DNA of 64,000 nucleotides from Muribaculaceae bacterium. Lineage in GTDB: Bacteria; Bacteroidota; Bacteroidia; Bacteroidales; Muribaculaceae. The stretch is taken from contig JAIDXM010000049.1 in the NCBI GenBank assembly GCA_029058745.1, forward strand, positions 45,069 through 109,068, in the 5' to 3' direction. Below are positions 21,809-37,015 of this stretch, piece by piece (position 1 is the stretch's first letter; each line of letters starts with the position of its first letter). The position numbers and the translations under genes are program-made. The notes beneath the pieces were generated by a model, which saw only the letters and a list, made by a program, of their open reading frames with translations, had not been told where the DNA came from and did not search any database.

Positions 21809-21815
21809 ATACCCC

Positions 21816-22040
21816 ATCATACTTCTCGACATGTGTGGTTTCAATTATAGAAGTATCGGAATTATATTGGGACTAAATTGCAAAACCGTTTCTTCAAAAA
21901 AGGTGAAACTGAGGCAACGGATTATGCAGTTTGAAGAAAATGTTGTCGGTATGTGTCTGAATCTAATTCCGATGATGTCAAGTAATAAGTGGTCGAATCA
22001 AAATATTTTCTCTGGAACTATCTCGTTGTTACTCTGTTGA
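21816..22040 (+). pseudogene. Truncated 3' end of a helix-turn-helix regulator
   Basis: The frame reading YPIILLDMCGFNYRSIGI onward is nearly identical to the last ~60 residues of the intact 194-residue regulator at 27103-27687, including its HTH. It has no start: the copy abuts ruvC. The end diverges (MMSSNKWSNQNIFSG...). This is a duplication remnant and is not expected to be expressed. Confidence 0.85.
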
Positions 22041-22227
22041 ATAGGGTTGCGTGGAACGATTTGCAATTACGGGTATTTGTGTATGTTTCAATTCTTTAAA
22101 ATATTTCGGGTATAATTCGTGGAGAAAAATTTAATGATTCTATATGTCAATATGTAAAGCTAAATTATTAATTTCGCGATTGAAAATGGTATTAAGTCAT
22201 TTTTCTTATTCAGATTATAAACTCAAT
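21816..22227 (+). repeat. Direct repeat R1, copy 1
   Basis: About 410 bp aligning almost end to end with 27511-27919: regulator 3' end plus the ~230-bp leader that precedes a secreted-peptide gene. Substitutions and small indels are more frequent in the non-coding part. It begins immediately after ruvC and ends at the left edge of a decayed insertion sequence. Confidence 0.9.
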
Positions 22228-23157
22228 AGTTCGTTAAAAATTTGTTCATCAGCTAAGCGGTATCAGCCGTCAAGCCAAAGAGTACTTTGACATGTTTAGC
22301 ATTTAAAGTCTTGTTCGGGTCAAATCCGCTCAGGTCAAAAAAAATTATGAAATGAGTGTTGACTATCAGAGACTTAATTTGACCGATAGAAAAAGGCATC
22401 TTCGTCTGCTTCCTGAGTACCCTGGTGATGTTGACGGCGGCAAGCGAGGCATTGTAGGCAAAATCCAAAGCCTTTTCATCGTGCGCCTGGCAACCGAGTA
22501 GTACTGTGAACTGGTGACCGTCACGGAAACAGAACTCGATTGATTAAGAGTCATATTCTTTCCTTCAAGTTCTGTCGCGTTGAGGGTCTGTGTTGCACGA
22601 AGCATCATCGCGTCCTTGATGCCAGCATCCATTACAGCGATACTGAGTATCACAAGTCCATGCTTGACTGCGGAGACGTAGCCTGACCAGAAGGTATGGT
22701 CTGTCTTCTTCCCCGCTTTGGATACATGACTTGGATCTATGGTTATAGCGGTCGCTTCATGTCATACTGGAATCGATATGCGGCGAGATTCATGTTGAAG
22801 CACAGCCAGTCGAAATCCTTACGGAAAGTATGACGATAGCGTTGCTCTACGCGCTTTCCGTAGCGTGCAAGTTGAAGAAAGTTTATATTTCGCGGTATTC
22901 ACATGATTAAAATCAGTATCTCGATAATGTTTTTCTTGAAAGTTTTGTTTAACTTTGCAATGCTACCAGAGAAAACTCTCCGGGAGATGCCCTATATTGG
23001 TCAAGTAGTTCGAAAATCAGCATAGCCTTATGTGTGGTCAGATATTATAAAGTTACTGAAAAATTAGCGACTTGGCCAAATTTTTGTGTTGAATTTTCAT
23101 GCTAAACATCAGATTTATCGAATTAAACACTTGGCTCCTCGGTGCCGTTAACAAACT
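22228..23157. mobile_element. Decayed insertion sequence
   Basis: About 930 bp bounded by AGTTCGTTAA (22228-22237) and TTAACAAACT (23148-23157), which pair at 9 of 10 positions as inverted ends. It contains a minus-strand transposase pseudogene. A 14-bp direct repeat (ATTATAAACTCAAT) flanks it at 22214-22227 and 23177-23190. The left copy touches the element, but the right one is 19 nt away, so exact ends are uncertain. It split the leader of the first peptide cassette. Confidence 0.65.
22255..22890 (-). pseudogene. Degenerate DDE transposase (IS4-like)
   Basis: Three reading-frame pieces on the minus strand fit successive parts of one transposase. The first is FLQLARYGKRVEQRYRHTF...FDWLCFNMNLAAYRFQYD near 22750-22890. 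The next is PSHVSKAGKKTDHTFWSGYVSAVKHGLVILS with the first catalytic-domain signature. The last is IEFCFRDGHQFTVLLGCQAHDEKALDFAYNASLAAVNI, the usual C-terminal E region. Stops and frameshifts separate them and a central block is missing, so it cannot make active enzyme. Confidence 0.75.
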
Positions 23158-23210
23158 ATCATAAAATAACCGGAGTATTATAAACTCAATTTAATTTAAA
23201 GGATTAGGTT

Positions 23211-23366
23211 ATGAAAAAGATATTTTCAGTATTATTGATTGTCTCAGGCGTGGTTGTTGGAATCGCCTATCCTATTGCTGGCAATGCTTATTGCGGAGAC
23301 GACTACCGTCTGACGCTGACAACCGCCTCCAATTCCACCTACGTCGGCTATTTTACCCTCGAATAA
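23211..23366 (+). CDS. Small secreted peptide, 51 residues, possibly prematurely stopped
   Basis: ATG 23211 opens MKKIFSVLLIVSGVVVGIAY, a clear signal peptide, then PIAGNAYCGDDYRLTLTTASN and a TAA at 23364-23366. It occupies the position of a cassette peptide, directly downstream of the leader interrupted by the IS. The same frame continues without a stop for 46 more codons (NRSISCECTDGTVITT...) with four cysteines, so the ancestral peptide may have been about 98 residues and the TAA a nonsense mutation. Function unknown. Confidence 0.5.
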   Translation: MKKIFSVLLIVSGVVVGIAYPIAGNAYCGDDYRLTLTTASNSTYVGYFTLE

Positions 23367-23572
23367 AATCGCTCGATTTCTTGTGAATGCACCGACGGGA
23401 CTGTCATCACGACAGTTCCCCTCCTGGAAGCAACACAGTGTCGAGATCTTATTCTGCGATACAATGCCAGACAACTTTCTCTGAAGCGTAATTGTATATT
23501 TTGAAAACTCAAAGTCCATGCCTCTACGCTTTGAAGTGGCAGGACAAATAATAACAATTAACCAACAAACTC

Positions 23573-23833
23573 ATGAAAAAGACGAAAAATCTTTTCTTCG
23601 CGGGGCTTGCGATAATGGCTCTTGCCGCAGGCGGATTCGCGTATCCGACAACCAAACCAGACAAATCCAACCATGGAGTTACACTTGATGAGATTGAGGC
23701 CACAACGGCATGTGAAGTCTCATCTGACGCCAGCAAAAATCAGGGATATTGTTCTTCCCTGTATAATGCCCCCACAGATGCATGCACTGAAACCGGTGAC
23801 GGAGGGGCTGTCAGGTGTTCCGGCAACATTTAA
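23573..23833 (+). CDS. Secreted cysteine-containing peptide A (NVEALA-like)
   Basis: An 86-residue precursor. Signal peptide MKKTKNLFFAGLAIMALAAGGFA is followed by a short segment with the core VTLDEIEATTA, resembling the leader motif of Bacteroidetes NVEALA peptides (LSDLxLANVEALA). The C-terminal part has four Cys (ACE, GYCSS, DACTE, VRCSG), enough for two disulfides. It lies 11 nt before a lipoprotein gene in a single operon. The family link is inferred from motif shape and neighbours, not from close identity. Confidence 0.7.
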   Translation: MKKTKNLFFAGLAIMALAAGGFAYPTTKPDKSNHGVTLDEIEATTACEVSSDASKNQGYCSSLYNAPTDACTETGDGGAVRCSGNI

Positions 23834-23844
23834 TGTGAGCGACT

Positions 23845-24996
23845 ATGTCAAGAGCAACAGTTTGTTTTATATTGGCATTAGTGTCGGCAGGGATAATCAC
23901 CCTGCCGGCTTGCATGCCCAACGGGAAGGGTTTTGACAATGAAATGTCGATGGTGGAATGCACGCGTCTTGCGCTCCCACTTGATTCCATCACGACGCAG
24001 GAAACGTCATACATGCAGTTGGTTGACGATTCCACGCTGGCATTTTTCAATAAGCCTACTTATGATATTTGTGTATATGATTTGAGGGACAAGGTTTTAA
24101 GGAATCGCATCTCGCTACGGCGCGAAGGTCCGGATGCCGTCAACGGCATTGATGCTTTCTTCCTGTCAGGACAGGACTCTATCTGGCTGTATGCAAGCTG
24201 GGGCAATGTCATATACCTCCTTGACGGAAACAGTTCCCTACGTGAGAAGCGGTCAATAAAAGACGATGTCATGGCGAAAGACGGCGGCACACGGCACTCC
24301 GTGTCGCCTTACCCTACCACCACGACTCCATATACTGTGGTTGACGGCAGGCATATACTTCAGGGAATGGATGGCATTGTCCTGCAGGGGAAAATGCCCG
24401 GAGCCACCGTCATTTATGACTGGAATTCGGGAAAGGTCGAGACCGCCAACGGATATCCATCAATCTATGGAGAAGGGAATGAGATTCAAAATAATTGGGA
24501 CACCTTCGGATACCGGGAGACATACTACACATTGAATGCCAAAAACGATATCGTGACAAGTTTTCCGGCCTCTGACAGCATCTATGTGTATTCTCCTAAC
24601 AGCGGGAAAAGCGAACGCCATTATGCTGGCTATTCCGAAACGGTTGACATTAAACCCGGAGTGCCGTCGGACCCTGACAGCAAAACCCGGAAATTCATTT
24701 CGCAACACCAGTATTCAGGTGTGCTCTATGACAGGTTCAACGACCTGTATTACCGGATAATACGTCTGCCGGGCAACGCAGATGCCCAGGATGTCAGGAA
24801 GGAGATTTCCTCAAAACCTGTGGTTGTCATTATCCTTGACGGGGAATTCAACAAGGTGGGTGAGTACAGGTTGCCGGAAGACATGTATTACACTGCAAAT
24901 GCGTTTGTCACGCCTGACGGACTTCATGTGAACACGGTTTCAGACGATGATGACCTTATGACATTCAGAGTTTTCAAACCACAAAGTTCAAGATAG
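23845..24996 (+). CDS. DUF4221-like lipoprotein, predicted beta-propeller
   Basis: A 383-residue lipoprotein. Signal peptide with lipobox ITLPAC gives Cys23 as the lipidation site. The body is all-beta with recurring short blades (SIWLYASWGNVIYLLDGN, DSIYVYSPNSGKSERHYAGY, KPVVVIILDGEFNKVGEY), and the sequence REGPDAVNGIDAF matches the EGP motif that marks DUF4221 and 6-bladed propeller lipoproteins next to NVEALA-type peptides. Probably anchored in the outer membrane or periplasm. It is 11 nt after peptide A and 1 nt before the thioredoxin-like gene. Confidence 0.7.
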   Translation: MSRATVCFILALVSAGIITLPACMPNGKGFDNEMSMVECTRLALPLDSITTQETSYMQLVDDSTLAFFNKPTYDICVYDLRDKVLRNRISLRREGPDAVNGIDAFFLSGQDSIWLYASWGNVIYLLDGNSSLREKRSIKDDVMAKDGGTRHSVSPYPTTTTPYTVVDGRHILQGMDGIVLQGKMPGATVIYDWNSGKVETANGYPSIYGEGNEIQNNWDTFGYRETYYTLNAKNDIVTSFPASDSIYVYSPNSGKSERHYAGYSETVDIKPGVPSDPDSKTRKFISQHQYSGVLYDRFNDLYYRIIRLPGNADAQDVRKEISSKPVVVIILDGEFNKVGEYRLPEDMYYTANAFVTPDGLHVNTVSDDDDLMTFRVFKPQSSR

Positions 24997-24997
24997 G

Positions 24998-25498
24998 ATG
25001 CAGGTAGGAAAATTATTGATATATGCCTCATTCCTGTCCTCATTCCTATTGTGCGGATGTTCAAGGCCGGATTATGCGGATTTTATTGAAGAGAGTCTGA
25101 ATAAAAACAATCCGGACTTCAGAAATCTGTTTGATACCATTGTCATAATACCGAGGCTTGGATGTAATTCGTGTACACGCGATGCCGATAGATATTATCG
25201 GTTGCATAAAGAGTCATCCGACATCATGTTCATTTTCACAAACCTTCAGTCGAAGAAAATGTTAAGGATTGAAAACGGCTCTGACATTGAGTCCAGGAGT
25301 AATGTATATATAGATGAGGGAAGGTCTTTTTGGTCTCCGGAATATGAAGAGAGCGAGTACCCTACCATCCTCAGTGCATGGAAAGAAAGGGCTCGCCATG
25401 GTGGACTCCATACAAGGCGTGACCGGAAAGTTCCACTCTGCCATACTGAGGTCTTATCCGGACATCCGCCATGTCGGGATGGATTTCCTGAGAAATGA
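24998..25498 (+). pseudogene. Thioredoxin-like lipoprotein, C-terminally truncated
   Basis: The 166-codon frame begins with a lipoprotein signal (lipobox ending at Cys21) and carries a CxxC redox site, RLGCNSCT (C56, C59). The thioredoxin fold is recognisable up to the cis-proline motif EYPTIL. After that the sequence (AWKERARHGGLHTRRDRKVP...) is read out of frame from the neighbouring transglutaminase gene. The last beta-strand and helix are therefore missing. Compare the complete homologue at about 33121-33676. The deletion joins this gene to the next one at about 25370-25400. Confidence 0.7.
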
Positions 25499-27065
25499 TA
25501 TGGAACTCGCCTTTGACATCAGGAGAAGGTTGCCCTGGTGTCGCAACGTGGCTGACAGCGACTTCATCCGCTATGTGATACCGTATCGTATAGGCGATGA
25601 GCGTGTGACAGACTGGAGGAGAGAGACCCTGCGCAGGCTACCATGGATGACGGAGGTCATCGACAGTCTCGTGGCGGAGAAGGTCGATGACCCTCTGGTC
25701 GCGGCTCAGGCCATCATGGACCGGTGGAACAGGACGGAGTTCCGTTGGACTGGGCAGCTGCCTTCCGGCCCGGCCCTCGGCATAGCCAACGTTACCGACA
25801 AGGCGGGCACATGCCGGGAGTTCGCCCACGGGGTGGTCTATCTCATGCGTGCCGCCGGCATCCCATCCGGCATTGACATGGTGCCGGTCAGAGGGGAGAA
25901 TAGTGCGGGACATTCCTGGCCGTTCATTATCGGAAAGGACGGCCAGACATACGTGACATGCACGGAAAACACCTCGTGGGTTCCGGCTTCGGAATTAGAT
26001 ATCATCGCCGCCAAGATATACCGCGAGGAGTTTGGAGTAAACGACGCCGTTGACTCCACGTTGCCCTCCGACCCGTCATTGCGCCCTTGCTTCCTTAGAG
26101 TCCCCAGGCTCACCGATGTTACGGAGGCATACAAGCCTTCGGCAAGCCATGAGATTTGCCTCCCCGACGTTGACTGCGGCGATGCCGTCTATCTCGCGTC
26201 GTGGGGCAACAATGAGTGGGTTGCTGTTGGATTCCATACCGGTACGGGACATCCTGTGTTCCACGATGTCTCCGAAGGCGTTGTGCTTGTCGCCGCAAGG
26301 ATGGAGGGGGACAAGCTCATGCCTGTATGCCGCCCGTTCGTGGTGGGACAGGGAGGTGCCATGCGCCACATAGGTCCCGGCGGCACGCAGAGAAAACTTA
26401 CCGCCTACGCCAAATTCCCTCTCAACGAGCGGAACGGGGAACTCGTGCACCGATGCATCGGAGGAGTGGTAGAGGGTGCGGACGACCCCGCGTTTACCGT
26501 GCGCGACACATTGTTCAGGATAGAGGGACTTGCCAAAAGGAGGGTAAACAGTATTGCCCTTCCCGCAAAGTCACGGCCACACAGGTATTACCGCTACTAT
26601 GGGGCGGATGGAAGCAACTGTAATATCGCGGAAGTCGCGCTCTACGCTGATGCCGGCGACACGGAACCTCTTCGAGGGAGGGTGTTCGGTACCCCAGGAG
26701 CTGTTGATGGTGACACCGCGCATGACTACCGTAAGGTGTTTGACGGTGACATACTAACCTCGTTCGACTACAAAGAAAAGTCAGGAGGTTGGTCGGCAAT
26801 CGACCTCGGCATACCGGTTGCTGTGGGGAAGGTAATGTTCGTGCCCAGAAACCGTGACAACTATGTCCGTGCCGGCGACGAGTATGAGCTGTTTTGGTTC
26901 GGGGATGAGAGATGGAACAGTGCGGGAAGGAAGCATGCGGTATCAGATTCTGTTGACTACATGGTTCCTGAAGGCACGCTCTATTACCTCAAGAATCATA
27001 CGAGGGGACGCTCGGAACGTATTTTCGAATACGATTTCAAAAGAAGGGAGCAACGCTTCTGGTAA
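25398..27065 (+). CDS. Transglutaminase-like protein with C-terminal discoidin-like domain, N-terminally truncated (cassette A)
   Basis: From the first ATG after the fusion point the protein has 555 residues. The transglutaminase/protease core has the catalytic Cys in KAGTCREFAHG (C139) and His in SAGHSWPFII (H172), followed by an Asp-containing strand. The C-terminal ~120 residues (AIDLGIPVAVGKVMFVPRNRDNYVRAGDEYELFWF) resemble an F5/8 type C sugar- or lipid-binding sandwich. It lacks the signal peptide and first ~80 residues seen in the homologue at 33673-35565, so it is probably not exported and may be non-functional although its frame is intact. An in-frame ATG at 25314 adds only residues from another gene. 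Confidence 0.7.
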   Translation: MVDSIQGVTGKFHSAILRSYPDIRHVGMDFLRNDMELAFDIRRRLPWCRNVADSDFIRYVIPYRIGDERVTDWRRETLRRLPWMTEVIDSLVAEKVDDPLVAAQAIMDRWNRTEFRWTGQLPSGPALGIANVTDKAGTCREFAHGVVYLMRAAGIPSGIDMVPVRGENSAGHSWPFIIGKDGQTYVTCTENTSWVPASELDIIAAKIYREEFGVNDAVDSTLPSDPSLRPCFLRVPRLTDVTEAYKPSASHEICLPDVDCGDAVYLASWGNNEWVAVGFHTGTGHPVFHDVSEGVVLVAARMEGDKLMPVCRPFVVGQGGAMRHIGPGGTQRKLTAYAKFPLNERNGELVHRCIGGVVEGADDPAFTVRDTLFRIEGLAKRRVNSIALPAKSRPHRYYRYYGADGSNCNIAEVALYADAGDTEPLRGRVFGTPGAVDGDTAHDYRKVFDGDILTSFDYKEKSGGWSAIDLGIPVAVGKVMFVPRNRDNYVRAGDEYELFWFGDERWNSAGRKHAVSDSVDYMVPEGTLYYLKNHTRGRSERIFEYDFKRREQRFW

Positions 27066-27102: not shown

Positions 27103-27687
27103 ATGGAAAATTCTTTTAATGATGACAATCGGTTTCATTCAGATCTAAATCCTCCTTCCTGGAGTGATTACAATCCCGACATTCTTGTCCGTATCGCTGA
27201 ATTGGAAAGTCTGGCCACAAGACTTTCCGTTCAGTTGGGAAATGCTTCTTTAGAGATAACCTGGCTTCGAAATTACCAGATTTCAAGTTTTTGTTCAAGG
27301 CATCGGCAAATATCGAAATATTGCAATACCGCTCCCCGGGGATGTCCCAAAAGGGAGATGGAAACATATGAAGCCATAAGAGAACATTGGCTGAGACTGT
27401 ATGGAACTTCGGAATATCTTGACAGTCTTGAGACGGAGATTTCATGCATTATGGGTGGTTTGCCAGATATCCTGAGGAGTAATCTGTTATTTTCAGACAT
27501 GGAGATAAGAATCATACTTCTCGACATATGTGGTTTCAATTATAGAAGTATCGGAATTATATTGGGACTTAATTGCAAGACTGTTTCTTCAAAAAAAGTG
27601 AAACTTAGGCAACGGATTATGCAGTTTGAAGAAAATGTTGTCGGTATGTGTCTGAATCTAATTCCGATGATGTCAAATGGGAATTAG
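27103..27687 (+). CDS. Soluble helix-turn-helix regulator of the peptide cassette
   Basis: A 194-residue cytoplasmic protein without a membrane segment. The N-terminal half looks coiled-coil (ILVRIAELESLATRLSVQLG). The C-terminal ~65 residues (RIILLDICGFNYRSIGIILGLNCKTVSSKKVKLRQRI) form a LuxR/sigma-4-like HTH, matching in layout the HTH of the membrane regulator at 35578-36804 (SACGFDYNVISELTGLSSSNVATIRSRLKKRL). It starts 37 nt after the transglutaminase gene. Likely controls the peptide operons (inference). The 3' end belongs to repeat R1. Confidence 0.75.
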   Translation: MENSFNDDNRFHSDLNPPSWSDYNPDILVRIAELESLATRLSVQLGNASLEITWLRNYQISSFCSRHRQISKYCNTAPRGCPKREMETYEAIREHWLRLYGTSEYLDSLETEISCIMGGLPDILRSNLLFSDMEIRIILLDICGFNYRSIGIILGLNCKTVSSKKVKLRQRIMQFEENVVGMCLNLIPMMSNGN

Positions 27688-27919
27688 CTGAGTCAAAAAT
27701 ATTTCTCTATGCTATCTCGTTATTAACCTGTTAAATAGCGTTGTGGGAAATGAGTTGTAGTTATAGATATTTATATGTGTTTCAATTCTTTATATCTTTT
27801 TTGGTATAATTCGTGGAGAAATTTTTAATGTTTCTATATCTCGATATGTAAATCCAAATTATTAATTTCGCGATGAAAAATGGTATTAAGCAGTTTTTTA
27901 TTCAGCTTATAGACTCAAT
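27511..27919 (+). repeat. Direct repeat R1, copy 2
   Basis: Matches 21816-22227 in order and orientation, about 5.69 kb apart. It comprises the last 177 bp of the regulator gene and its downstream non-coding segment, which serves as the leader of peptide B. The 247 bp at 27688-27934 hold no gene. An imperfect TAATTTCG at about 27860-27870 could be a weak -7 element. Confidence 0.9.
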
Positions 27920-27934: not shown

Positions 27935-28189
27935 ATGAAAAGATTTATCTATGGAGGGATTATATTAACGACCCTCGCTATCAATGGGTATGTCTCCGCG
28001 TCAACGGAGACTGAGCAGACTGAGTTATCCAGTGTGCAACTTGCCACACTGGATGCCCTCACTGACAATGAAAGTGTTGTGAAAATCCCATGCCGTACAT
28101 ATTACGGGAAGACATGTTCTTTTAGCGCAATAAATTCCGAAGGTCAATATGGTACTGTGGTACTGACTGACCAGGAACGTGTAGATTAA
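27935..28189 (+). CDS. Secreted peptide B (NVEALA-like)
   Basis: An 84-residue precursor. Signal peptide MKRFIYGGIILTTLAINGYVSA is followed by LSSVQLATLDALTDNE, the closest match in the window to the NVEALA leader core. The mature part IPCRTYYGKTCSFSAINSEG has two Cys. It is followed by a 17-bp hairpin and then a propeller lipoprotein. Probable signal or toxin peptide of cassette B; function unknown. Confidence 0.75.
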   Translation: MKRFIYGGIILTTLAINGYVSASTETEQTELSSVQLATLDALTDNESVVKIPCRTYYGKTCSFSAINSEGQYGTVVLTDQERVD

Positions 28190-29427: not shown

Positions 29428-30125
29428 GTGAACGTGTACATATGGTTGCTTGCTTTCTCAGACCGGATGTCTCGGCATGGCGCCGACAGGGGAGCGCGGG
29501 AGGCACTGGAACGTGTGGACGCAGTCTTGGACGAGATGCCGGACTCTGCCCTTGCGATAATCAAGGGGATTGACACGACAAGACTCAATACCGAAAGGCT
29601 CAAGGCGGATTATTCCCTGCTTCGGACAATGGCCCTTCTCAAGACCGACCCCTCATCCGCCACAGTGGAGGGTCTGAAACCTGCTTACGAATATTATGGA
29701 GACTCCGGCGAGCCTTCTCGGCAGGCGATGCTCACTCATTTCGCAAAAGGGATGCTTGCGGATTCGATTTAATCCGCGTTTGATGGGTTCAACAAGTCGA
29801 TAAGATTTGCTTACGGGGAATATGCCATCTGCTATGAGGTGATGGCGTCTCTGAATAAGTCTCTGACTTGGCTACCTCGAATGGTTTCAGTGGTTTCCTG
29901 AGGAAGTGTGGGATGACTGCCAATGAAGAAAAAGTGACGGTCTATTCTGCATGCGGATTTGATTATAATGTGATTTCGGAGCTGACCGGTCTTTCATCAG
30001 GCAATGTGGCGACGATAAGGAGCAGGTTGAAAAAAAGGTTAAAGGAAAAGGGGATAGACTCGGAGATAGCAAGTTGGGTGGCTGTTGTTGAGCCGGCGGT
30101 ATTGCCGGGTCACGTAGAAAGTTGA
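29428..30125 (+). pseudogene. Broken TPR/HTH regulator of cassette B
   Basis: The N-terminal piece starts at GTG 29428 and contains a TPR-like segment (GAREALERVDAVLDEMPDSALAIIKGID). TAA at 29770-29772 stops it, while the same frame continues (SAFDGFNKSIRFAYGEYAICYEVMASLNKSL) to about 29865. There a deletion joins it, in another frame, to the C-terminal HTH (NGFSGFLRKCGMTANEEK...). Compared with the 408-residue homologue at 35578-36804, the membrane helix and coiled coil are gone. The HTH frame could start at 29868 and make an 85-residue fragment. Confidence 0.8.
29864..30100 (+). repeat. Direct repeat R2, copy 1
   Basis: 237 bp encoding the HTH end of the regulator, differing from 36552-36788 at only a few positions with no indels. 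Such similarity suggests recent duplication or gene conversion. Confidence 0.92.
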
Positions 30126-30129
30126 AGAT

Positions 30130-30404: not shown

Positions 30405-30436
30405 ATTGTGTATATAGTGTATATTTTATATCTTTG
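30405..30436 (+). promoter_or_regulatory. Promoter of the toxin-antitoxin pair
   Basis: TATCTTTG at 30429-30436 fits TAnnTTTG, with ATTG at 30405-30408 at the right spacing (20 nt). The start point would be about 30442, so the antitoxin should begin at ATG 30456 and not at the upstream ATG 30408. Confidence 0.65.
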
Positions 30437-30455
30437 TGCTATAAATCCAAATTGT

Positions 30456-30755
30456 ATGGCAACATCACTAAACATCAAGCGCAAAAACATCGACCTCCCC
30501 GTCGATACTCTGCAAAAGCTTTCCATCATGGCAGTGGCCCAAGGCAAGAGCTTAAAGAATTTCATCGAGACGGTTCTTATATCAAAGGCAAATACCTTGG
30601 CCATTGAAGTAAGCGAAAACCCATCTCCCTCCGGCGATCCATGGTTCAATGACCCGGAAAACATAGCATCCCTTAACAGGGGTATCGCGGAACTGAAAGC
30701 AGGGAAAGGCCGGGCGTATTCGATGGACGAAATAAGAGAACTGTTAGGCGTATGA
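30456..30755 (+). CDS. Antitoxin of a YoeB/Txe-type module
   Basis: A 99-residue protein. The N terminus (MATSLNIKRKNIDLPVDTLQKLSIMAVAQGKSLKNFIETVL) looks like a ribbon-helix-helix DNA-binding domain; the C terminus (WFNDPENIASLNRGIAELKAGKGRAYSMDEIRELLG) is the toxin-binding segment typical of RelB/YefM-type partners. It overlaps the toxin gene by 4 nt (ATGA), so the pair is co-translated. It would neutralise the toxin and repress the operon. Confidence 0.8.
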   Translation: MATSLNIKRKNIDLPVDTLQKLSIMAVAQGKSLKNFIETVLISKANTLAIEVSENPSPSGDPWFNDPENIASLNRGIAELKAGKGRAYSMDEIRELLGV

Positions 30756-31030
30756 CTTACGAACTAATTCTAATGCCCGAAGCTGAAAAACACTTGAAAG
30801 AGTGGCGTAAGTCCGGGCAAAAGAAAACGCTAAAGAAAATAGCCGATTTATTTGATGAACTTCGACTGCACCCCACCACAGGAACAGGACACGTTGAACA
30901 GCTCAAAGGGAATTATTCCGGCTATTGGAGTCGGGAAATAAACAAGGGGAACAGAATGATTTACAGTATTGAAGATGACAAGGTATTTGTCAACGTGGTA
31001 TCTCTCAAAGGTCATTACGGCGACAAATGA
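30752..31030 (+). CDS. YoeB/Txe-family mRNA interferase toxin
   Basis: A 92-residue RelE-superfamily ribonuclease. KKTLKKIADLFDELRLHPTTGTG, VEQLKGNYSGYWSREINKGNRMIYSI and the end VVSLKGHYGDK follow the YoeB pattern (LKxNLSGxWSRRI...RLVY...HY), including the C-terminal His-Tyr that contributes to catalysis. Known members cleave mRNA at the ribosome. The module sits between repeats that are adjacent in the other copy, so it was inserted after the duplication. Confidence 0.85.
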   Translation: MTYELILMPEAEKHLKEWRKSGQKKTLKKIADLFDELRLHPTTGTGHVEQLKGNYSGYWSREINKGNRMIYSIEDDKVFVNVVSLKGHYGDK

Positions 31031-31139: not shown

Positions 31140-31311
31140 ATTGAAAAAAGGGCTGGATGGATTGGATTATCCATAATTTTTATCTAAATTGGCGAGAGAA
31201 CCCGCTTTTGATGGTTCTATAAATAATACGGAATGTTTGAGGGATTCATTATCTTGAGAAGCGGTAGGGCGGAGGGGTGGTTCGGAATGATGAATATTCT
31301 GATAAATTCCG
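31140..31311 (+). repeat. Direct repeat R3, copy 1
   Basis: 172 bp nearly identical to 36844-37015, exactly 5704 bp apart, no indels. It contains a promoter-like segment whose -7 word reads TAAATTGG here versus TAAATTTG in copy 2. It lies ~120 bp before peptide C. The surrounding gap 31031-31433 has no gene. Confidence 0.92.
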
Positions 31312-31433
31312 ATTAATTAAAAGAATAACAAAAGGAATTGCCTATGGTAAAAACAGGAATTTAAAAATTTGTATGGCTGCTGAAACGATACATGCAGTAG
31401 AATAGAATCTAATGTTTAATTAAAATATAAAAG

Positions 31434-31721
31434 ATGAAGAAATTACAACTTATTATATTCCTTTTGGTTGCGCTCAATGCATCGCTATATGCCCAGATAC
31501 GTCAATCAGAAGTGGAGAGAGATACGATAGTCATGGAGGAAGTGGAAACCTTGGCTGAAGAAGAACGGGATGGTGACTGTTTTATTTCAGGCGGTCCAGG
31601 GTCGGTGTCATGTTCCATGGGTGGAGGTGCCGGTTCGATAGATGGAAATTGCCAGGTATCTTGTAACTCATCGTATTATGCATGTTGCGGTTTTGGATGT
31701 CATTGTAAACCATATCATTGA
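31434..31721 (+). CDS. Secreted cysteine-rich peptide C (NVEALA-like)
   Basis: A 95-residue precursor. Signal peptide MKKLQLIIFLLVALNASLYA is followed by an acidic linker with VMEEVETLAEEE in the position of the NVEALA core. The mature region has eight Cys in 47 residues (GDC, SVSC, GNC, VSC, ACC, GC, HC) together with a glycine-rich stretch GGPGSVSCSMGGGAG. The even Cys number and a CxxC thioredoxin-like gene downstream suggest a four-disulfide mini-protein. No homologue recognised beyond the leader type. Confidence 0.75.
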   Translation: MKKLQLIIFLLVALNASLYAQIRQSEVERDTIVMEEVETLAEEERDGDCFISGGPGSVSCSMGGGAGSIDGNCQVSCNSSYYACCGFGCHCKPYH

Positions 31722-31802: not shown

Positions 31803-31892
31803 ATTTTATTGTATAATTATAAATTTTAAGTATGTGTTAAAAATTAATTAATGCATAGCTTAAAAAATCTGAGGCGACCTTTCGAATTCGAA

Positions 31893-31936
31893 TTCGGATT
31901 CAGCAACAATGGAACCCCATTGCACCATCATCCGAA
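31893..31936. other. Composite hairpin in the peptide C to propeller gap
   Basis: Outer arms TTCGGAT (31893-31899) and ATCCGAA (31930-31936) enclose inner arms CAATGG (31907-31912) and CCATTG (31917-31922). The 305-bp gap 31722-32026 holds this and the preceding terminator, and no gene. Role unknown; could be a regulatory RNA structure or operator. Confidence 0.4.
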
Positions 31937-32026
31937 TCCAAAATTTCATCCGCATATTTCATAATTCTATATGATACTTAATTTAGTACACATACTTATC
32001 ATTTTTAGTTTTTTAATGATTAACAA

Positions 32027-33121
32027 ATGAAGAATGTTTTTTTAGTCCTTGTGATAGGTCTGTCGTTGTTTGCTGGGTGCTCCCGAGAGGACGACACCGA
32101 AGGCTTATCTACATTATCTGTTGATCTCTCAAAAACGGAAGACCTTCTATTGTCAAACGGAAAAATCCTTAACATAGAAACCTCCGACAGTTCCCTCCTA
32201 TATTCCTATGCCAACATATTGAAGTCGGACGGCAGGTTGTTCATACATTCGCGCGACCTACTGAAGATATTTGACCCTGTTACTGGAAAATATCTCGGCA
32301 GGCTTGGCCGGAAAGGTAACGGTCCTGCGGAATACGCTTCCATAAATCAGGTATGGATGGAGGGGGACACCGTCCGGCTGTTTGATTTCAACACCCGTTC
32401 CGTACTTAGTTTCAAATCCGACGGAACATTCATTTCAAAGGTCAACCCTTATTTGGGTGACAATTCCCGGACCAACGACCTCAAGTTCCCTGTCTATGTC
32501 ATGAAGTATCCGGATTCGAGCGGGTACATCGGTCTCAACTGTTTCACCGACGGCACTACCGAGACGAACCCCACGGCATCGTTCTATGACAACGACCTTG
32601 GATTTGTGTCCGACATAAGGGGACGTGAGCTCCGTGAAGGCGGTAACCTTAACGACAGGATGTCTGCCGACCTTGAAAACGGCAGGATGCTTATGTGGGA
32701 AGGGTTGAAAGATACGCTATTCACTGTAACCAAGACCGATATAAGGCCGTTGTACGCCTTCGATTTCGGCAAGAACAGATTCCCTCCGGAATACCAGAAC
32801 TTACCGGAACTTTTCGGGAGGGCGCAAAAATTCCGGGAAGGTAAAGACGTGCCATACGCTTCCGCCATGCACTGTTTCCAGAAACAGGGAGATCGGATTT
32901 TCTTTTCATTTTCCACATCCGACGAACGCTTCTTTCTCGGCATGATAGATATCGGCAACAAAACTGTAAGGACGTTCAGGCTTGTCTCTCCAGACGGCAG
33001 GTTCTCCCAAAGCTCGTATATGACGATGATGGATGGCTCCCTGTATATCTCGCTGACCGACGGTGATAGCCCTGAATCGAACCAGCCCTTGTTCATAATT
33101 CCCACAAATTATTTTGACTAA
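32027..33121 (+). CDS. 6-bladed beta-propeller lipoprotein (cassette C)
   Basis: A 364-residue lipoprotein with lipobox SLFAGC (Cys18). Propeller features are LLKIFDPVTGKYLGRLGRKGNGPAEY (GNGPAEY replaces EGPDEF), WMEGDTVRLFDFNTRSVLSF and regularly spaced blades to the end. Same class as the proteins at 28313 and 23845. It runs straight into the thioredoxin-like gene: its TAA overlaps an ATG at 33121 (TAATG). Probably a surface or periplasmic partner of peptide C. Confidence 0.75.
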   Translation: MKNVFLVLVIGLSLFAGCSREDDTEGLSTLSVDLSKTEDLLLSNGKILNIETSDSSLLYSYANILKSDGRLFIHSRDLLKIFDPVTGKYLGRLGRKGNGPAEYASINQVWMEGDTVRLFDFNTRSVLSFKSDGTFISKVNPYLGDNSRTNDLKFPVYVMKYPDSSGYIGLNCFTDGTTETNPTASFYDNDLGFVSDIRGRELREGGNLNDRMSADLENGRMLMWEGLKDTLFTVTKTDIRPLYAFDFGKNRFPPEYQNLPELFGRAQKFREGKDVPYASAMHCFQKQGDRIFFSFSTSDERFFLGMIDIGNKTVRTFRLVSPDGRFSQSSYMTMMDGSLYISLTDGDSPESNQPLFIIPTNYFD

Positions 33122-33676
33122 TGAAAAAGATACTTATTAGTATTGCTATCCGTTATTTCGGGATGGCTCGGTAGCACGCTTTATTATAAAAAACAATCCG
33201 ATGTCGCTGTGGATATTCAAGTATCGTCATATATCGCACAGGAGTTCAATCTTTACAACGACGGGAGAATCCCTTTGATTGACAGTCTTGAAACGTATGA
33301 CGGCACGGCGATTCCGTTTAAAGATATTTCCGGAGGGACGGATTTGTTTGTCTATTTTGATACGTCAGGTTGTCCTCCTTGTAAAGAGTTGGCTTTCAAA
33401 GCTCTTTCCGAATATAAGACGAAAAAACCGGACTCAAGGATTTCTCTCTTGCTTGAAAATGTAAGAAACCGTGATTTGCTTGTAATGCAAAAGGAACTAC
33501 ATGACAGCTACATATTTTTAAAAATCCGTAAATTTCCGTTCAAGAAAGTGGATAAGGAAGACGAGATGCTTTCTCCTGTATTTTTTCAAATTGATTCCAC
33601 CGGGGTATTTACGAATTGTTTTAAGGTGGACCTTAATCATCCTGAAGACTTGAAGGAATATATAGAGAGGATATGA
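33121..33676 (+). CDS. Thioredoxin-like exported protein (cassette C), start region frameshifted
   Basis: From TTG 33143 the frame gives 177 residues with redox site TSGCPPCKEL (C77, C80), a thioredoxin fold and DSTGVFTNCF near the end. The natural ATG at 33121 is in a different frame and stops after 17 codons. Removing one A from the run ATGAAAAAG would give MKRYLLVLLSVISGWLGS, an ideal signal peptide continuous with the protein. So the gene has a single-base frameshift at A5, or uses TTG 33143, or the base is a sequence error. Role: probably disulfide reduction or isomerisation in the periplasm. It overlaps the next gene by 4 nt. Confidence 0.65.
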
Positions 33677-35565
33677 AGTATAGATGTGGCATAACTATAT
33701 TGCCGTGGCTGTTGATTTTATACTTAACTGCCTGTTCTGACCTGTCGGGTATGGATGCCGTATTGGATTCGGCAGGTGAAAACCGTGTTGAACTCGAAAG
33801 GGTACTCGATTATTTCAAGGGAGTCCCGTTTAAGTACGATGCAGCATGTTTTCTCATATCCAACATGTCCGGCAAACACCACTATGTGGGGTGGCAGCTA
33901 GACAGTCTGAAAGCCGTTAAGCCACTTGGACGCATGGATGACGAGGAACTGTCCCGGTGGGACGGCTTCGATTTCCGTAAGGACTGCCGGAAAGTCATGG
34001 ACGTAAAAACGGTAGATGCGGAAGTCTTGATTGAGAATATCGAGCTTGCCTGCGAGGTATGGCTTTCGCGCCCTTGGCATGGTAGGTATTCGTTCAATGA
34101 TTTCTGCGAGTACGTCCTTCCGTACAAGGTCGGTGACGAACCGCCGGAACGGTGGCGAAAACTATGGTACGACCGGTACGCCCCCCTGATGGATTCCATA
34201 CTTTCCCAAACCACTGACATCGTCGAGGTAGCGTCAATGATTGCAGACAGATTGAAGTCGGAGGGTTTCGACAACCATGACGATGTCGATGTCCCTCACT
34301 TCGGAGCCTCGTTTCTTATGGGACACCGTGTGGGGTACTGCCGGGAGAACTGTGACATTGCCGCCTATGCCATGCGTTCGCTCGGCATACCCGTTGCCAC
34401 GGATAGGTATGTCACGTCGCCATCCTATAACAGTCGCCATTTCTGGAGTGCTCTCATCGACACGACGGGACTTGCGGTTCCGTTTAACTACACCGAGAGG
34501 AGTATAAGCCGAACCCCCGACCCGCAAAGGAGGAAGATGGGAAAGGTGTATCGCCGTTTCTATGGCAAGCAGGGACGGAAGTCGGTGCACGTCCCGGACA
34601 AATTGCTTCCGAAATTGTTCCGCGACCCTCATACCCGCGATGTCTCGGAAGAATATTTTCCCGACAGCAAACCTGTGACGGTGGCTTTTCCTGATGGATG
34701 TGGAGTCGGATATCTGTGCGTTTATAACGGAACGAGATTCGACGCTATAGATGTTGCCGCTGTCAAAGACTACAAAGGCGTGTTCCGTTATATAGAAGAC
34801 GGTGTCCTTTTGTTCCCTACTGTGTATGAAAATGGGAAGATGCGGCCTTGTGGTTATCCACTTCTGACCGGTAGGAAGACACACAGGAGATTTATCCCCG
34901 ACAAAGGGAAAAGGGGGACTGTGGTGTTGAACCGGAAATATCCCATGGTCAATACCGGGCGTTTCCTCGCCAACATTATAGGGGGACGTATAGAGGCTTC
35001 GGCAGACATCCGGTTCATATGCCCGACGCTTGTGGCGGAATTTACAGACACGGCACGTACCAATAGGCTTATTTATCAACCGAATTTAAAAGGTGTTAGG
35101 TATATCCGTTATGTTGCACCCTCTGACCGCCGCATAGAGATTGGCGAGATGCATTTTTATAATAAGGGGGAGGAGATAAGGCCCTGCAAGATAACGCCGG
35201 ACCGGGAACTTGACAGCATCCATATCCATAATTTCAAGTTGATTACCGATAACGTATGGCATTCTTTCTATCTCTCGCAGGAAGGGGAGGTGTTGACATT
35301 CGATTTTGGGAAGCCGGTTGATATGGACAGGGTTCTGTTCGTGCCGAGGAATGACGACAACTTCGTTAGGGAGGGTCAGGATTACGAGTTGTTTTTCCAT
35401 GACGGGGAATTGGGATGGCGTTCGTTGGAAAGGAAGACCGCCCTAGCGGACTCAATTGGATTTGACCACGTCCCGGGCAACGCTGTCCTTTGGCTACACG
35501 ACTATTCCGGAGGTAAGGAGGAACGTCCTTTCTACATTGAAGATGGCCGACAAGTGTTTATATGA
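33673..35565 (+). CDS. Secreted transglutaminase-like protein with discoidin-like C-terminal domain (cassette C)
   Basis: A 630-residue protein, the full-length form. The N terminus MKYRCGITILPWLLILYLTACSD is a lipoprotein-type signal. The transglutaminase-like core has the Cys in RVGYCRENCDIAAYAMRSLGIP (C223), His in SRHFWSALIDTTG (H256) and Asp263, a plausible triad. A central domain of unknown fold follows, then a C-terminal sandwich (YIRYVAPSDRRIEIGEMHFYNKGEE... FDFGKPVDMDRVLFVPRNDDNFV). Members of this superfamily act as cross-linking enzymes, deamidases or proteases. Substrate here unknown; peptide C is a candidate. TGA at 35563 is followed in the same frame by the next gene. Confidence 0.75.
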   Translation: MKYRCGITILPWLLILYLTACSDLSGMDAVLDSAGENRVELERVLDYFKGVPFKYDAACFLISNMSGKHHYVGWQLDSLKAVKPLGRMDDEELSRWDGFDFRKDCRKVMDVKTVDAEVLIENIELACEVWLSRPWHGRYSFNDFCEYVLPYKVGDEPPERWRKLWYDRYAPLMDSILSQTTDIVEVASMIADRLKSEGFDNHDDVDVPHFGASFLMGHRVGYCRENCDIAAYAMRSLGIPVATDRYVTSPSYNSRHFWSALIDTTGLAVPFNYTERSISRTPDPQRRKMGKVYRRFYGKQGRKSVHVPDKLLPKLFRDPHTRDVSEEYFPDSKPVTVAFPDGCGVGYLCVYNGTRFDAIDVAAVKDYKGVFRYIEDGVLLFPTVYENGKMRPCGYPLLTGRKTHRRFIPDKGKRGTVVLNRKYPMVNTGRFLANIIGGRIEASADIRFICPTLVAEFTDTARTNRLIYQPNLKGVRYIRYVAPSDRRIEIGEMHFYNKGEEIRPCKITPDRELDSIHIHNFKLITDNVWHSFYLSQEGEVLTFDFGKPVDMDRVLFVPRNDDNFVREGQDYELFFHDGELGWRSLERKTALADSIGFDHVPGNAVLWLHDYSGGKEERPFYIEDGRQVFI

Positions 35566-35577
35566 CACAATGCTGAT

Positions 35578-36804
35578 GTGCTTTTATTGTCGGGGAATGC
35601 ATATATCGGTTGTCATGAGAGCGACAGCGCCGTGTATGAACTACAGAAGGCAATTGCGATTTCTGGCGAGGCGGGAGACGATGACATAAAGATGCGGTCT
35701 GCATTAAGTCTGGCATACGCTAAGAGTCTGAAAGGTTGTGACGAGGAAGCCGTAGAGGGATTCACGCAAGTGATGTCGGAGGGGAAGCTCCCTTTTTCGA
35801 CATATGACATCAACGCTTTCGTAAGGTCACTTGCAAAAACAGGTCGTATAGAGGAGGCTGAAAGCTATATGGACTTTATTCCTGACGGCAGTACGCCATC
35901 GCAGAAGTCCGACAGGTTCTGCACATTGTCTGTATTGATGACAGCAAGAGGGTATGACAGGATGGCGTATGCTTTCAAGGATTCCATGACGGCATACGCC
36001 AATAATGCTGTCATGGAAAAAAGTAACGGTGACGATATTGGCTCAGTCAGTCCGGATTATGAGAATGTTATGTCGGACGGTAATGGAAATGCGACATTCT
36101 GGGCATACCTTTCGGCGGTGTTGATATTTGTAGCACTGGTGGCGGCTTTACTATTTGAGTTCAATCGGAGAAGGGGAAATAGGTCTGCCGTTGAAAACAA
36201 TACTGTCGATGCCGTTGACAGTGAACAGTATGAAGATATAGCAGTATTTAACAAGATTGTTGAGGAATTCCGTAAAGTCAACACCATACTTTTGGCACGT
36301 GTGGCTGATCTTGAAAAGGACTATCGACGTCGCACTATTGAATACGAGGAATATTCGGACAGATTGTCGGAGATGCGCGGTTTCATGAAGTCTAAAGTCC
36401 TTACATGCCATAGTCGAATCGCTGGATTCTGCAACCGGTATTCTTCACCCAAGGCACGTGAGAAGGCCGGCAGGGATATTCTGGAGAGAAGAAAGGAATT
36501 TCTTGACGATTACAGAGGGGAAAAGAATTTAGGGAATATAATCAGGCTGTTTGACTTGGCTACCGCGAATGGTTTCAGTGGTTTCCTGAGGAAGTGTGGG
36601 ATGACTGCCAATGAAGAAAAAGTGACGGTCTATTCTGCATGCGGATTTGATTATAATGTGATTTCGGAGCTGACCGGTCTTTCATCAAGCAATGTGGCGA
36701 CGATAAGGAGCAGGTTGAAAAAAAGGTTAAAGGAAAAGGGGATGGATTCGGAGATAGCAAGTTGGGTGGCTGTTGTTGAGCCGGCGGTGTTAACGCATGG
36801 GTGA
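35578..36804 (+). CDS. Membrane TPR/HTH regulator (cassette C), N terminus missing
   Basis: A 408-residue protein read from GTG 35578. The order is TPR-like repeats (DSAVYELQKAIAISGEAGDDD, SALSLAYAKSLKGCDEEAVEGFTQV), one membrane helix at about 174-195 (FWAYLSAVLIFVALVAALLFEF), a coiled coil (FRKVNTILLARVADLEKDYRRR), and a LuxR-like HTH near the C terminus. Full-length relatives start with a signal sequence and more TPRs; these are absent here and the frame follows directly, in phase, from the upstream TGA. The broken gene at 29428 has just that missing N-terminal part. Likely a sensor-regulator for the peptides (inference). Confidence 0.7.
   Translation: MLLLSGNAYIGCHESDSAVYELQKAIAISGEAGDDDIKMRSALSLAYAKSLKGCDEEAVEGFTQVMSEGKLPFSTYDINAFVRSLAKTGRIEEAESYMDFIPDGSTPSQKSDRFCTLSVLMTARGYDRMAYAFKDSMTAYANNAVMEKSNGDDIGSVSPDYENVMSDGNGNATFWAYLSAVLIFVALVAALLFEFNRRRGNRSAVENNTVDAVDSEQYEDIAVFNKIVEEFRKVNTILLARVADLEKDYRRRTIEYEEYSDRLSEMRGFMKSKVLTCHSRIAGFCNRYSSPKAREKAGRDILERRKEFLDDYRGEKNLGNIIRLFDLATANGFSGFLRKCGMTANEEKVTVYSACGFDYNVISELTGLSSSNVATIRSRLKKRLKEKGMDSEIASWVAVVEPAVLTHG
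36552..36788 (+). repeat. Direct repeat R2, copy 2
   Basis: 237 bp pairing with 29864-30100, encoding the regulator HTH. Followed after 55 bp by R3 copy 2, showing that R2 and R3 were originally adjacent. Confidence 0.92.
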
Positions 36805-36843
36805 AGGCGTGGGGAAACACGTATGGATTAAGTCGAGACAGCA

Positions 36844-37015
36844 ATTGAAAAAAGGGCTGGATGGATTGGATTATCCATAATTTTTATCTAAATTTGCGAG
36901 AGAACCCGCTTTTGATGGTTCTATAAATAATACGGAATGTTTGAGGGATTCATTATCTTGAGAAGCGGTAGGCCGGAGGGATGGTTCGGAATGATGAATT
37001 TTCTGATAAATTCCG
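36844..37015 (+). repeat. Direct repeat R3, copy 2
   Basis: 172 bp pairing with 31140-31311. Here it is the promoter and leader of deoC, ending 36 nt before its ATG. Confidence 0.92.
36865..36896 (+). promoter_or_regulatory. Promoter of deoC inside repeat R3
   Basis: ATTG (36865-36868), 20-nt spacer, TAAATTTG (36889-36896) fits the Bacteroidetes consensus. It predicts a leader of about 150 nt before deoC. Confidence 0.65.

What the first reader, a model, noticed from the sequence alone, without database searches (positions are those of the whole stretch)
21809..37015. Tandem island of secreted-peptide cassettes with propeller, thioredoxin, transglutaminase and TPR/HTH regulator genes
Four small secreted-peptide genes (23211, 23573, 27935, 31434) sit in at least three cassettes. 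Each cassette has a beta-propeller lipoprotein (23845, 28313, 32027); two have a thioredoxin-like and a transglutaminase-like gene (24998/25398 and 33121/33673); and each ends in an HTH regulator (27103, 29428, 35578). Peptides B and C carry short acidic cores like the NVEALA leader. NVEALA-type peptides beside EGP-motif propeller lipoproteins are known in Bacteroidetes. I know of no described function for this combination with transglutaminase-like and thioredoxin-like genes. Model (inference): an exported precursor is cut, disulfide-bonded and perhaps cross-linked, then acts as a signal, toxin or surface component that the membrane TPR regulator senses.
Basis: partly seen in the sequence, partly recalled or inferred. 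Interest (0 to 1): 0.9.

Follow-up and report, generated by a model that had tools for sequence, protein, structure and literature searches.

The report
Swappable secreted-peptide cassettes with matched propellers
Gut bacteria of the order Bacteroidales carry arrays of small peptide genes in which one shared leader sequence is joined to ever-changing cysteine-rich cores, each core tending to keep its own propeller-protein gene beside it; the cores are predicted to be exported and would likely act as toxins on neighbouring bacteria, with the propeller as the likely antidote.

Summary
The island is real and belongs to a widespread, patchy Bacteroidales system. Three of the four "secreted peptides" (23573, 27935, 31434) fit a leader profile built from other genomes; 23211 does not. 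The cassette-1 TG-like gene and all three HTH genes are incomplete or short.

In 60 NVEALA-anchored loci, 56 hold a propeller, 39 a thioredoxin-like gene, 28 a TG, 21 a dedicated S26 signal peptidase, 18 an O-antigen-ligase-like gene; the last two are absent from the island but present elsewhere in this genome.

Main new result: a constant/variable design. In 206 gene pairs with unrelated cores, DNA homology covers upstream region and leader and stops at the EALA motif (median 0 nt). Core similarity predicts similarity of the adjacent propeller (Pearson 0.68, 88 pairs; 0.71, 69 further pairs; 0 of 2000 permutations each), far better than similarity of TG (0.13) or thioredoxin (0.21); leader similarity hardly predicts the propeller (0.18, -0.04). 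Passive linkage is not excluded.

Best reading: polymorphic secreted peptides, likely toxins, with a core-matched propeller, likely immunity. Signalling is the main rival. Activity is untested.

The parts
21816..22227 (+). Left copy of boundary repeat 1: 3' end of an HTH gene plus downstream stretch, directly after the 209-aa ORF that ends at 21808
   Evidence: 86% identical to 27511-27919
23211..23366 (+). Small ORF A (51 aa), signal-like N-terminus; not an NVEALA-type peptide, possibly the remnant of another small secreted gene
   Evidence: leader profile 8.0 bits, best shuffle 7.3; 65 nt at 83% to the stretch upstream of the peptide gene L108:6341
23573..23833 (+). Peptide precursor B (86 aa): leader ..VTLDEIEATT, Cys-containing core
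   Evidence: leader profile 16.5 bits; -135..+97 is 78% identical to a peptide gene of a second array on the same contig, cores unrelated
23845..24996 (+). Propeller B1, DUF4221 lipoprotein
   Evidence: Pfam 1e-29; relatives in L019, L049, L228 stand beside CESIGWWDNDGNC-core peptides, a core unlike that of peptide B; no leader peptide was found beside its closest relatives L007, L008
24998..25498 (+). Thioredoxin-like lipoprotein (CNSC), overlaps the next ORF in another frame
   Evidence: no Pfam family over cut-off; a 143-aa gene of like sequence (by eye) stands beside a DUF4221-type propeller in L248
25314..27065 (+). Transglutaminase-like gene of cassette 1, N-terminal part missing
   Evidence: Pfam Transglut_core 1e-6
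27103..27687 (+). Regulator A, HTH part only (194 aa)
   Evidence: matches the C-terminal ~110 residues of L108:11181-13202
27511..27919 (+). Right copy of boundary repeat 1, ends just before peptide C
27935..28189 (+). Peptide precursor C (84 aa): leader ..LSSVQLATLDALT, 2-Cys core
   Evidence: leader profile 18.0 bits; core resembles, by eye, the peptide beside the related propeller in L053
28313..29422 (+). Propeller B2 (no Pfam family over cut-off; propeller by predicted fold)
   Evidence: AF2 pLDDT 80.2, pTM 0.81; 407 PDB matches at E<=0.001; relatives L037, L053
29428..30125 (+). Remnant of a TPR-HTH regulator: N part 29428-29772 and C part 29868-30125 in different frames
   Evidence: N part 81% identical to residues 53-148 of L108:11181-13202; C part = repeat 2
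29864..30103 (+). Left copy of boundary repeat 2 (first block)
   Evidence: 98% identical to 36552-36791
30408..31030 (+). Toxin-antitoxin pair inside the boundary (weakly ParD-like antitoxin, YoeB/ParE-type toxin); not part of the peptide system
   Evidence: Pfam YoeB_toxin 3e-17, ParD 0.011 below cut-off
31140..31314 (+). Left copy of boundary repeat 2 (second block)
   Evidence: 97% identical to 36844-37018
31434..31721 (+). Peptide precursor D (95 aa): leader ..VMEEVETLA, Cys-rich core
   Evidence: leader profile 14.8 bits; same core type as L075:6892-7197
32027..33121 (+). Propeller B3, DUF5128/DUF4934 lipoprotein
   Evidence: Pfam 3e-18; L075:7202, next to the matching peptide, is tied second (1e-14) of 63 hits, itself included, after L079
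33143..33676 (+). Thioredoxin-like protein (CPPC)
   Evidence: Redoxin 0.0055, below cut-off
33673..35565 (+). Transglutaminase-like lipoprotein (630 aa) with C-terminal CBM62/CBM32-like regions
35578..36804 (+). Regulator B: TPR-like part, one hydrophobic segment, HTH; first ~217 residues missing against its paralogue
36552..37018 (+). Right copy of boundary repeat 2 (both blocks)

Best explanation
The island is a run of tandem cassettes of a Bacteroidales peptide system with a constant part (upstream region and leader) and an exchangeable part (cysteine-rich core plus the propeller gene beside it); the core is predicted to be exported and is likely a toxin, against which its own propeller lipoprotein likely gives immunity. 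Shown here: the DNA boundary at the EALA motif, core-propeller co-segregation, recurrent gene company, even cysteine numbers, and the repeats that bound the window cassettes. Inferred steps: (1) the leader inserts into or crosses the inner membrane; (2) the leader is removed after EAL[AST], by the dedicated S26 signal peptidase or by the transglutaminase-like Cys-His enzyme; (3) the thioredoxin-like lipoprotein helps form disulfides; (4) the O-antigen-ligase-like protein and the sugar-binding-like domains of the TG handle or attach a glycan; (5) the mature core acts on neighbours; (6) the propeller binds its own core. New specificities would arise when homologous recombination in the shared leader (here perhaps also in the repeats at cassette ends) swaps core and propeller together.
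For: Constant/variable boundary: 206 pairs with unrelated cores, homology ends at median 0 nt after EALA (quartiles -1, +9; 202 of 206 within -40..+30); in 45 pairs with related cores it runs on by median 1095 nt, into the propeller gene and near the limit compared (pairs share genes). Co-segregation: r=0.68 (88 pairs), r=0.708 in 69 further pairs, 0 of 2000 permutations each; same cassettes core-TG 0.13 (n=38), core-TRX 0.21 (n=32), partial core-prop given TG 0.70, core-TG given prop 0.00. Exchange between close relatives: Bacteroides fragilis Q1F2 and S82, flanks 89-96% identical, core and propellers without DNA match; B. cellulosilyticus and B. timonensis likewise. Own genome: peptide B leader shared with a second array, cores unrelated. 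Cys parity 207:24. Gene company. Propellers lipobox-like 241 of 298 against 112 of 463 controls; 121 of 286 propellers without a found peptide upstream, as orphan immunity genes would be.
Against: No activity data of any kind. Core and propeller are neighbours with no shared sequence between them, so their co-segregation could be passive linkage. Spearman correlation over the full matrix is -0.05: the signal lies in the minority of related cores. Discordant pairs: 11 of 72 core-similar pairs, 15 of 73; peptide D with L075 is one of them (core 0.38, propeller 0.10). The unpaired propellers have a peptide-paired relative elsewhere in 118 of 121 cases but only 34 at 40% identity or more, and the peptide finder may miss peptides. 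Cores are on average acidic (D+E 12.9%, K+R 7.7%), unlike many bacteriocins. EALA lies a median 25 residues past the hydrophobic stretch, far for an ordinary type I signal-peptidase site. Of 16 TG-anchored loci of the window's own family only 7 hold a propeller and 6 leader peptides were found. In this genome TPR-type genes follow several TG genes, which also fits signalling.
Confidence: 0.45

Rival explanations
1. Signalling: the mature core is a pheromone or kin signal, the propeller lipoprotein is its receptor or concentrator, and TPR-HTH or histidine-kinase regulators respond to it.
For: TPR-type genes follow TG genes in several arrays of this genome (window, C11, C56:114-116 kb); a HisKA/HATPase protein closes the operon of L016. 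Core-propeller matching would fit ligand and receptor equally.
Against: The window regulators are incomplete or short; relatives of them are in only a few fetched loci. A lipoprotein propeller cannot signal across the membrane on its own (general knowledge). 24 Pfam NVEALA matches in one genome (G240) would need many separate signals.
Confidence: 0.27
2. Surface display: the core is attached to a glycan or lipid by the O-antigen-ligase-like protein with the TG-like enzyme, and serves as a variable surface tag carried by its propeller.
For: O-antigen-ligase-like gene in 48 of 79 TG-anchored loci, often next to TG or the peptidase; TG has CBM62/CBM32-like stretches.
Against: Ligase in only 18 of 60 NVEALA-anchored loci and not in the window island; an acceptor site shared by the cores was not looked for.
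Confidence: 0.15
3. Nutrient or ion binding: propeller and peptide form a small uptake or storage unit, and diversity reflects many ligands.
For: A table of the Bacteroides thetaiotaomicron iron stimulon lists BT0662 (O-antigen ligase), BT0664 (6-bladed propeller) and BT0667 (signal peptidase I) (PMC10434189, passages only).
Against: In that table BT0667 goes up while BT0662 and BT0664 go down, with second-column values of 0.11 to 0.35 (presumably p values); no transporter is a regular part of the kit among the families I tracked; exchange precisely at the leader end fits arms-race loci better.
Confidence: 0.08
4. Chance neighbourhood: unrelated genes that happen to lie together in a degraded island.
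For: The window copy is partly decayed.
Against: Recurring company in the 79 TG-anchored and 60 NVEALA-anchored loci (some share contigs) and a core-propeller correlation that holds in further pairs.
Confidence: 0.03

Closest known systems
Polymorphic toxin systems (CDI, Rhs and the like; general knowledge, recalled)
   Same: Constant N-terminal part, exchangeable C-terminal part with its own partner gene directly downstream, exchange by recombination at the boundary, orphan partner genes.
   Different: Small peptides (core median 38 residues), no large carrier protein; partner is a beta-propeller lipoprotein; dedicated peptidase, thioredoxin-like, TG-like and ligase-like genes. Toxicity and immunity not shown.
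Bacteroidetocins (PMC6671954, passages read)
   Same: Small Cys-containing peptides of Bacteroidales with a leader and a thiol oxidoreductase gene nearby; that paper says Bacteroides lack the general disulfide machinery.
   Different: Bacteroidetocins have 15-16-residue leaders cut after GG, a peptidase-containing ABC transporter and no evident immunity protein; here a ~43-residue leader with a hydrophobic stretch and EALA end, no such transporter seen in the island, and a matched propeller.
Bacteroidales RiPP clusters (PMC10352776, passages read)
   Same: Leader/core precursors with dedicated enzymes.
   Different: The passages describe PCAT transporters with GG motifs, YcaO and radical SAM enzymes; the terms NVEALA, PF14055, beta-propeller, transglutaminase and signal peptidase have 0 occurrences in the main text.
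Pfam NVEALA (PF14055) and propeller families DUF4221/DUF5128/DUF4934
   Same: Peptides and propellers of the system fall in or near these families.
   Different: They are sequence families named without function in Pfam's descriptions shown; window peptides score below the NVEALA cut-off.
Transglutaminase-like cysteine enzymes (factor XIII, TgpA, 3isr, PNGase)
   Same: Predicted fold of residues ~120-340 and invariant Cys and His.
   Different: Third catalytic residue not conserved in A1; extra N-terminal helical part and C-terminal sugar-binding-like parts; reaction unknown.

Membership tests
Pfam NVEALA (PF14055) | Score over the gathering cut-off of 27 bits | tested here: not met
   27935 16.8 bits, 31434 17.7 bits, 23573 and 23211 no hit at E<=1
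NVEALA-type leader peptides (this report's profile) | Leader profile from other genomes, above shuffles | tested here: met
   23573, 27935, 31434: 16.5, 18.0, 14.8 bits; best of 1000 shuffles 7.3; 23211 at 8.0 not counted
NVEALA-type leader peptides (this report's profile) | Propeller gene directly downstream | tested here: met
   23845, 28313, 32027 follow the three peptides; 88 of 110 peptides in the first set
Polymorphic toxin systems | Constant N-terminal region with exchangeable C-terminal region | tested here: met
   206 pairs; two species pairs; own genome
Polymorphic toxin systems | Partner gene that travels with the variable part | tested here: met
   passive linkage not excluded
Polymorphic toxin systems | Toxic activity of the variable part and protection by the partner | not testable with these tools
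   needs experiments
Bacteroidetocins / GG-leader bacteriocins | Double-glycine cleavage site | tested here: not met
   window leaders end EATTACE, DALTDNE, ETLAEEE; no GG at the boundary
Bacteroidetocins / GG-leader bacteriocins | Peptidase-containing ABC transporter in the cluster | tested here: not met
   none among the 16 ORFs of the island run through Pfam
Transglutaminase-like superfamily | Catalytic Cys and His | tested here: met
   C223 and H256 invariant in 24 sequences
Transglutaminase-like superfamily | Third catalytic residue (Asp/Asn) | tested here: inconclusive
   no invariant residue at the expected place in A1
Six-bladed beta-propeller lipoproteins | Propeller fold and lipobox | tested here: met
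   Pfam for 23845 and 32027, fold for 28313, blade number not counted; lipobox-like 241 of 298 relatives
Dedicated S26 signal peptidase as part of the kit | Gene in the same island | tested here: not met
   not found in the window by the profile; present in this genome at C11, C23, C93, C108; within 200 nt of another kit gene in 65 of 71 cases, in loci chosen for the kit

The most novel reading that the evidence does not exclude
Bacteroidales run a previously undescribed polymorphic peptide warfare system: a leader ending in EALA, a dedicated signal peptidase, a TG-like cysteine enzyme with sugar-binding domains, an O-antigen-ligase-like protein and a thioredoxin-like lipoprotein mature hundreds of different disulfide-bonded cores, and each core is neutralised by its own beta-propeller lipoprotein, a new immunity fold; recombination in the leader swaps core and immunity together, and single strains stack many such cassettes.
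Probability: 0.35. Interest if true: 0.93.

Novelty: new variant of a known kind. Interest (0 to 1): 0.82.

Why it matters
If the cores are toxins and the propellers their antidotes, Bacteroidales of the gut hold a large stock of narrow peptide weapons and a new immunity fold. If they are signals, it is a large set of matched ligand-receptor pairs. Either way a set of families that databases carry without function (NVEALA, DUF4221, DUF5128, DUF4934, the TG-like lipoproteins) gets one common, directly testable role: which core goes with which propeller can be read off the gene order. One of the 118 genomes has 24 Pfam NVEALA matches; 237 distinct peptides were collected here.

Tried and rejected

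Literature: NVEALA 0 papers; combinations of signal peptidase, transglutaminase, propeller, O-antigen ligase, leader and secreted peptide gave none or nothing on point in the listings; DUF/Pfam numbers gave five papers, four with Plasmodium or malaria in the title, probably matching gene numbers; 6-bladed beta-propeller with Bacteroides 7 papers, of which I opened one for passages; a search for Bacteroides peptide toxins gave 47, 12 listed, two opened for passages. Only open-licence PMC papers are searchable, so "not described" means not found in these searches.
Full report
1. What is in the window. The island runs from 21809 (directly after the 209-aa ORF ending at 21808) to 37018. It holds three cassettes: peptide B 23573, propeller 23845, thioredoxin-like 24998, TG-like 25314, HTH 27103; peptide C 27935, propeller 28313, regulator remnant 29428-30125; peptide D 31434, propeller 32027, thioredoxin-like 33143, TG-like 33673, regulator 35578. 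Pfam places 23845 in DUF4221, 32027 in DUF5128/DUF4934 and 25314 in Transglut_core; 33673 is below cut-off there but aligns with its relatives over full length. The thioredoxin-like genes are below every cut-off and named for their CxxC. Propeller 28313 has no family over cut-off but folds as a propeller. In the two pairs compared the propellers are not similar to each other.

2. Boundaries. Direct repeats mark cassette ends: 21816-22227 with 27511-27919 (86%), 29864-30103 with 36552-36791 (98%), 31140-31314 with 36844-37018 (97%). They carry the 3' end of a regulator gene and downstream DNA; the first reaches to just before peptide C. Recombination between them would remove or add whole cassettes; the lone regulator 3' end at 21816 fits a lost cassette (inference). 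The left copy of the second repeat is split by about 1 kb with a YoeB/ParE-type toxin-antitoxin pair. Decay is visible: in the TG of cassette 1 homology starts only at residue 87-106 of the family, and each regulator gene is incomplete or short against the 673-aa paralogue on contig C11.

3. The peptides. A leader profile made from 100 peptides of other genomes scores 23573, 27935 and 31434 at 16.5, 18.0 and 14.8 bits; 1000 shuffles of the four ORFs (250 each) reach at most 7.3; 23211 gets 8.0 and is left out. A second array on the same contig, 50-60 kb from peptide B (L091), has four peptides with the same local leader type..QLExI/LE/DALS/T. DNA from -135 to +97 of peptide B is 78% identical to one of them and nearly as far to a second, while the cores are unrelated.

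4. The kit. With the TG alignment A1 the genome collection gave 506 relatives; the best 80 (79 loci) were kept. Of these 79 loci 51 hold a propeller, 46 a thioredoxin-like gene, 39 a dedicated S26 peptidase and 48 an O-antigen-ligase-like gene. In the first set (these loci, the window and nine stretches of its genome) 110 peptides were found, 88 followed by a recognised propeller within 500 nt. To lessen the bias of a TG anchor I fetched 60 loci around Pfam NVEALA matches, mostly in the family of genome G105: 56 hold a propeller, 39 thioredoxin-like, 28 TG, 21 S26, 18 ligase. Of 132 peptides there, the next gene is a recognised propeller in 77, thioredoxin-like in 8, another gene in 29, none in 3, and 15 lie at an edge; 22 more have a next gene of propeller size, 290-430 aa. 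Of 71 S26 genes found in the 164 loci 65 lie within 200 nt of another gene of the kit; the loci were chosen for the kit and some overlap. In L016 the order is NVEALA peptide, DUF5128 propeller, thioredoxin-like with DUF1573, TG, Peptidase_S26, Wzy_C with TPR, a 148-aa gene, histidine kinase. This genome has such S26 genes on C11, C23, C93 and C108, the one on C93 next to the ligase-like gene.

5. Distribution. The genome is probably of the family Muribaculaceae: handle G025, of its family, has a contig of the length of the Heminiphilus faecis contig of L014. TG-profile matches of any strength occur in 51 of 99 genomes of the family, but only 14 of 99, this one included, have a match at E<=1e-60, and none of the four other genomes of the same genus does. 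This genome has about eight TG copies. The system is thus accessory. Against my reading: of 16 TG-anchored loci of this family only 7 hold a propeller, and only 6 leader peptides were found; several TG genes there sit with a ligase and other small secreted proteins.

6. Constant leader, variable core. Among 218 peptide genes, 206 pairs with unrelated cores share at least 75% DNA identity through the leader. Homology starts a median 111 nt before the ATG and ends at median 0 nt after the EALA motif (quartiles -1 and +9; 202 of 206 within -40..+30). In 45 pairs with related cores homology runs on for a median 1095 nt, that is into the propeller gene and near the limit of what was compared. The pairs are not independent, since one gene enters many pairs. 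Bacteroides fragilis Q1F2 and S82 show one exchange: flanking blocks 89-96% identical, a break five codons after EALA in the peptide gene of Q1F2 and another in the thioredoxin-like gene, and no DNA match for the core and propellers between. B. cellulosilyticus and B. timonensis show another, with the break at codon 41-42, inside EALA; there the thioredoxin-like and TG genes are exchanged too, apart from one 171-nt match.

7. Core and propeller tend to belong together. In 88 pairs core similarity correlates with similarity of the adjacent propeller (Pearson 0.68; 0 of 2000 permutations, maximum 0.23), leader similarity hardly (0.18). Spearman is -0.05, because most cores are unrelated to each other and only the related ones carry signal. 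In the same cassettes core against TG gives 0.13 (38 cassettes) and core against thioredoxin 0.21 (32). Of 72 pairs with similar cores 61 have similar propellers, against 30 of 3756 others. In 69 further pairs from the NVEALA-anchored loci, after removal of near copies, r is 0.708 (0 of 2000, maximum 0.15), leader -0.04; 58 of 73 against 26 of 2273; most of the discordant ones printed involve one peptide, L199. The window agrees in part: L075:7202, tied second among the relatives of propeller 32027, stands beside a peptide with the core type of 31434, but L225, tied with it, stands beside another core, no peptide was found beside the closest relative L079, and the similarity score of the L075 pair is low (0.10). 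L053:2158, a relative of 28313, stands beside a peptide that resembles 27935 by eye. For peptide B no matching core was found. The limit of this result: no homology lies between core and propeller, so recombination cannot easily part them, and passive linkage is not excluded.

9. Reading. The shape of the system (constant leader, swapped core, core-matched downstream partner, 121 of 286 propellers without a found peptide, stacked cassettes, patchy occurrence) is that of toxin-immunity systems. I commit to that at 0.45, with signalling at 0.27. Nothing here shows toxicity, binding or export.

10. Novelty. The single families are known by name; their joint system and the core-propeller logic were not found in nine searches of open papers, of which I saw listings, and passages of three papers. 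I file it as a new variant of a known kind, leader-core peptides with polymorphic-toxin logic, and not as categorically new, because function is untested.

Noticed in passing
30408-31030: YoeB/ParE-type toxin with a weakly ParD-like antitoxin inside a cassette boundary repeat.
   Followed up: partly
22230-23160: Stretch between the left boundary repeat and the first small ORF reads like decayed, frame-shifted transposase pieces (recalled likeness only); Pfam finds nothing in the three short ORFs tried.
   Followed up: partly
L091 (C56:119000-138000 of the genome): Second array on the same contig with four peptides, four propeller-sized genes, two thioredoxin-like genes (the one tested has DUF1573) and a TG.
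   Followed up: yes
L243:8341-11917, L244:8025-11622, L245:1753-5432, L249:7480-10988: TG and O-antigen-ligase-like genes stand side by side with other families of small secreted proteins and no NVEALA-type peptide among the genes listed, so the TG-ligase pair may be the more general unit.
   Followed up: no
32 cassettes: Leader similarity correlates with thioredoxin-like similarity (r=0.76), not with TG (0.22, 38 cassettes) and hardly with the propeller (0.18); perhaps the thioredoxin-like protein reads the leader, perhaps few close pairs.
   Followed up: no
L108:5867-6280, L109:390-785, L091:4053-4421: A second kind of small secreted protein (122-137 aa) accompanies peptide genes in this genome; ORF 23211 may be a remnant of it.
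   Followed up: partly
G240: One genome of 2.5 Mb has 24 Pfam NVEALA matches.
   Followed up: partly
L002, L015: Records labelled Lachnospiraceae carry the TG gene; L015's contig has the length (73813) of contig C1 of G339, a genome of the window's family, so at least that label is probably a binning error.
   Followed up: no
17959-20289, 37965-39107, 40499-43756: Neighbours outside the island: alpha-rhamnosidase-like hydrolase, endonuclease I family protein, tricorn-type peptidase with PD40 repeats.
   Followed up: no
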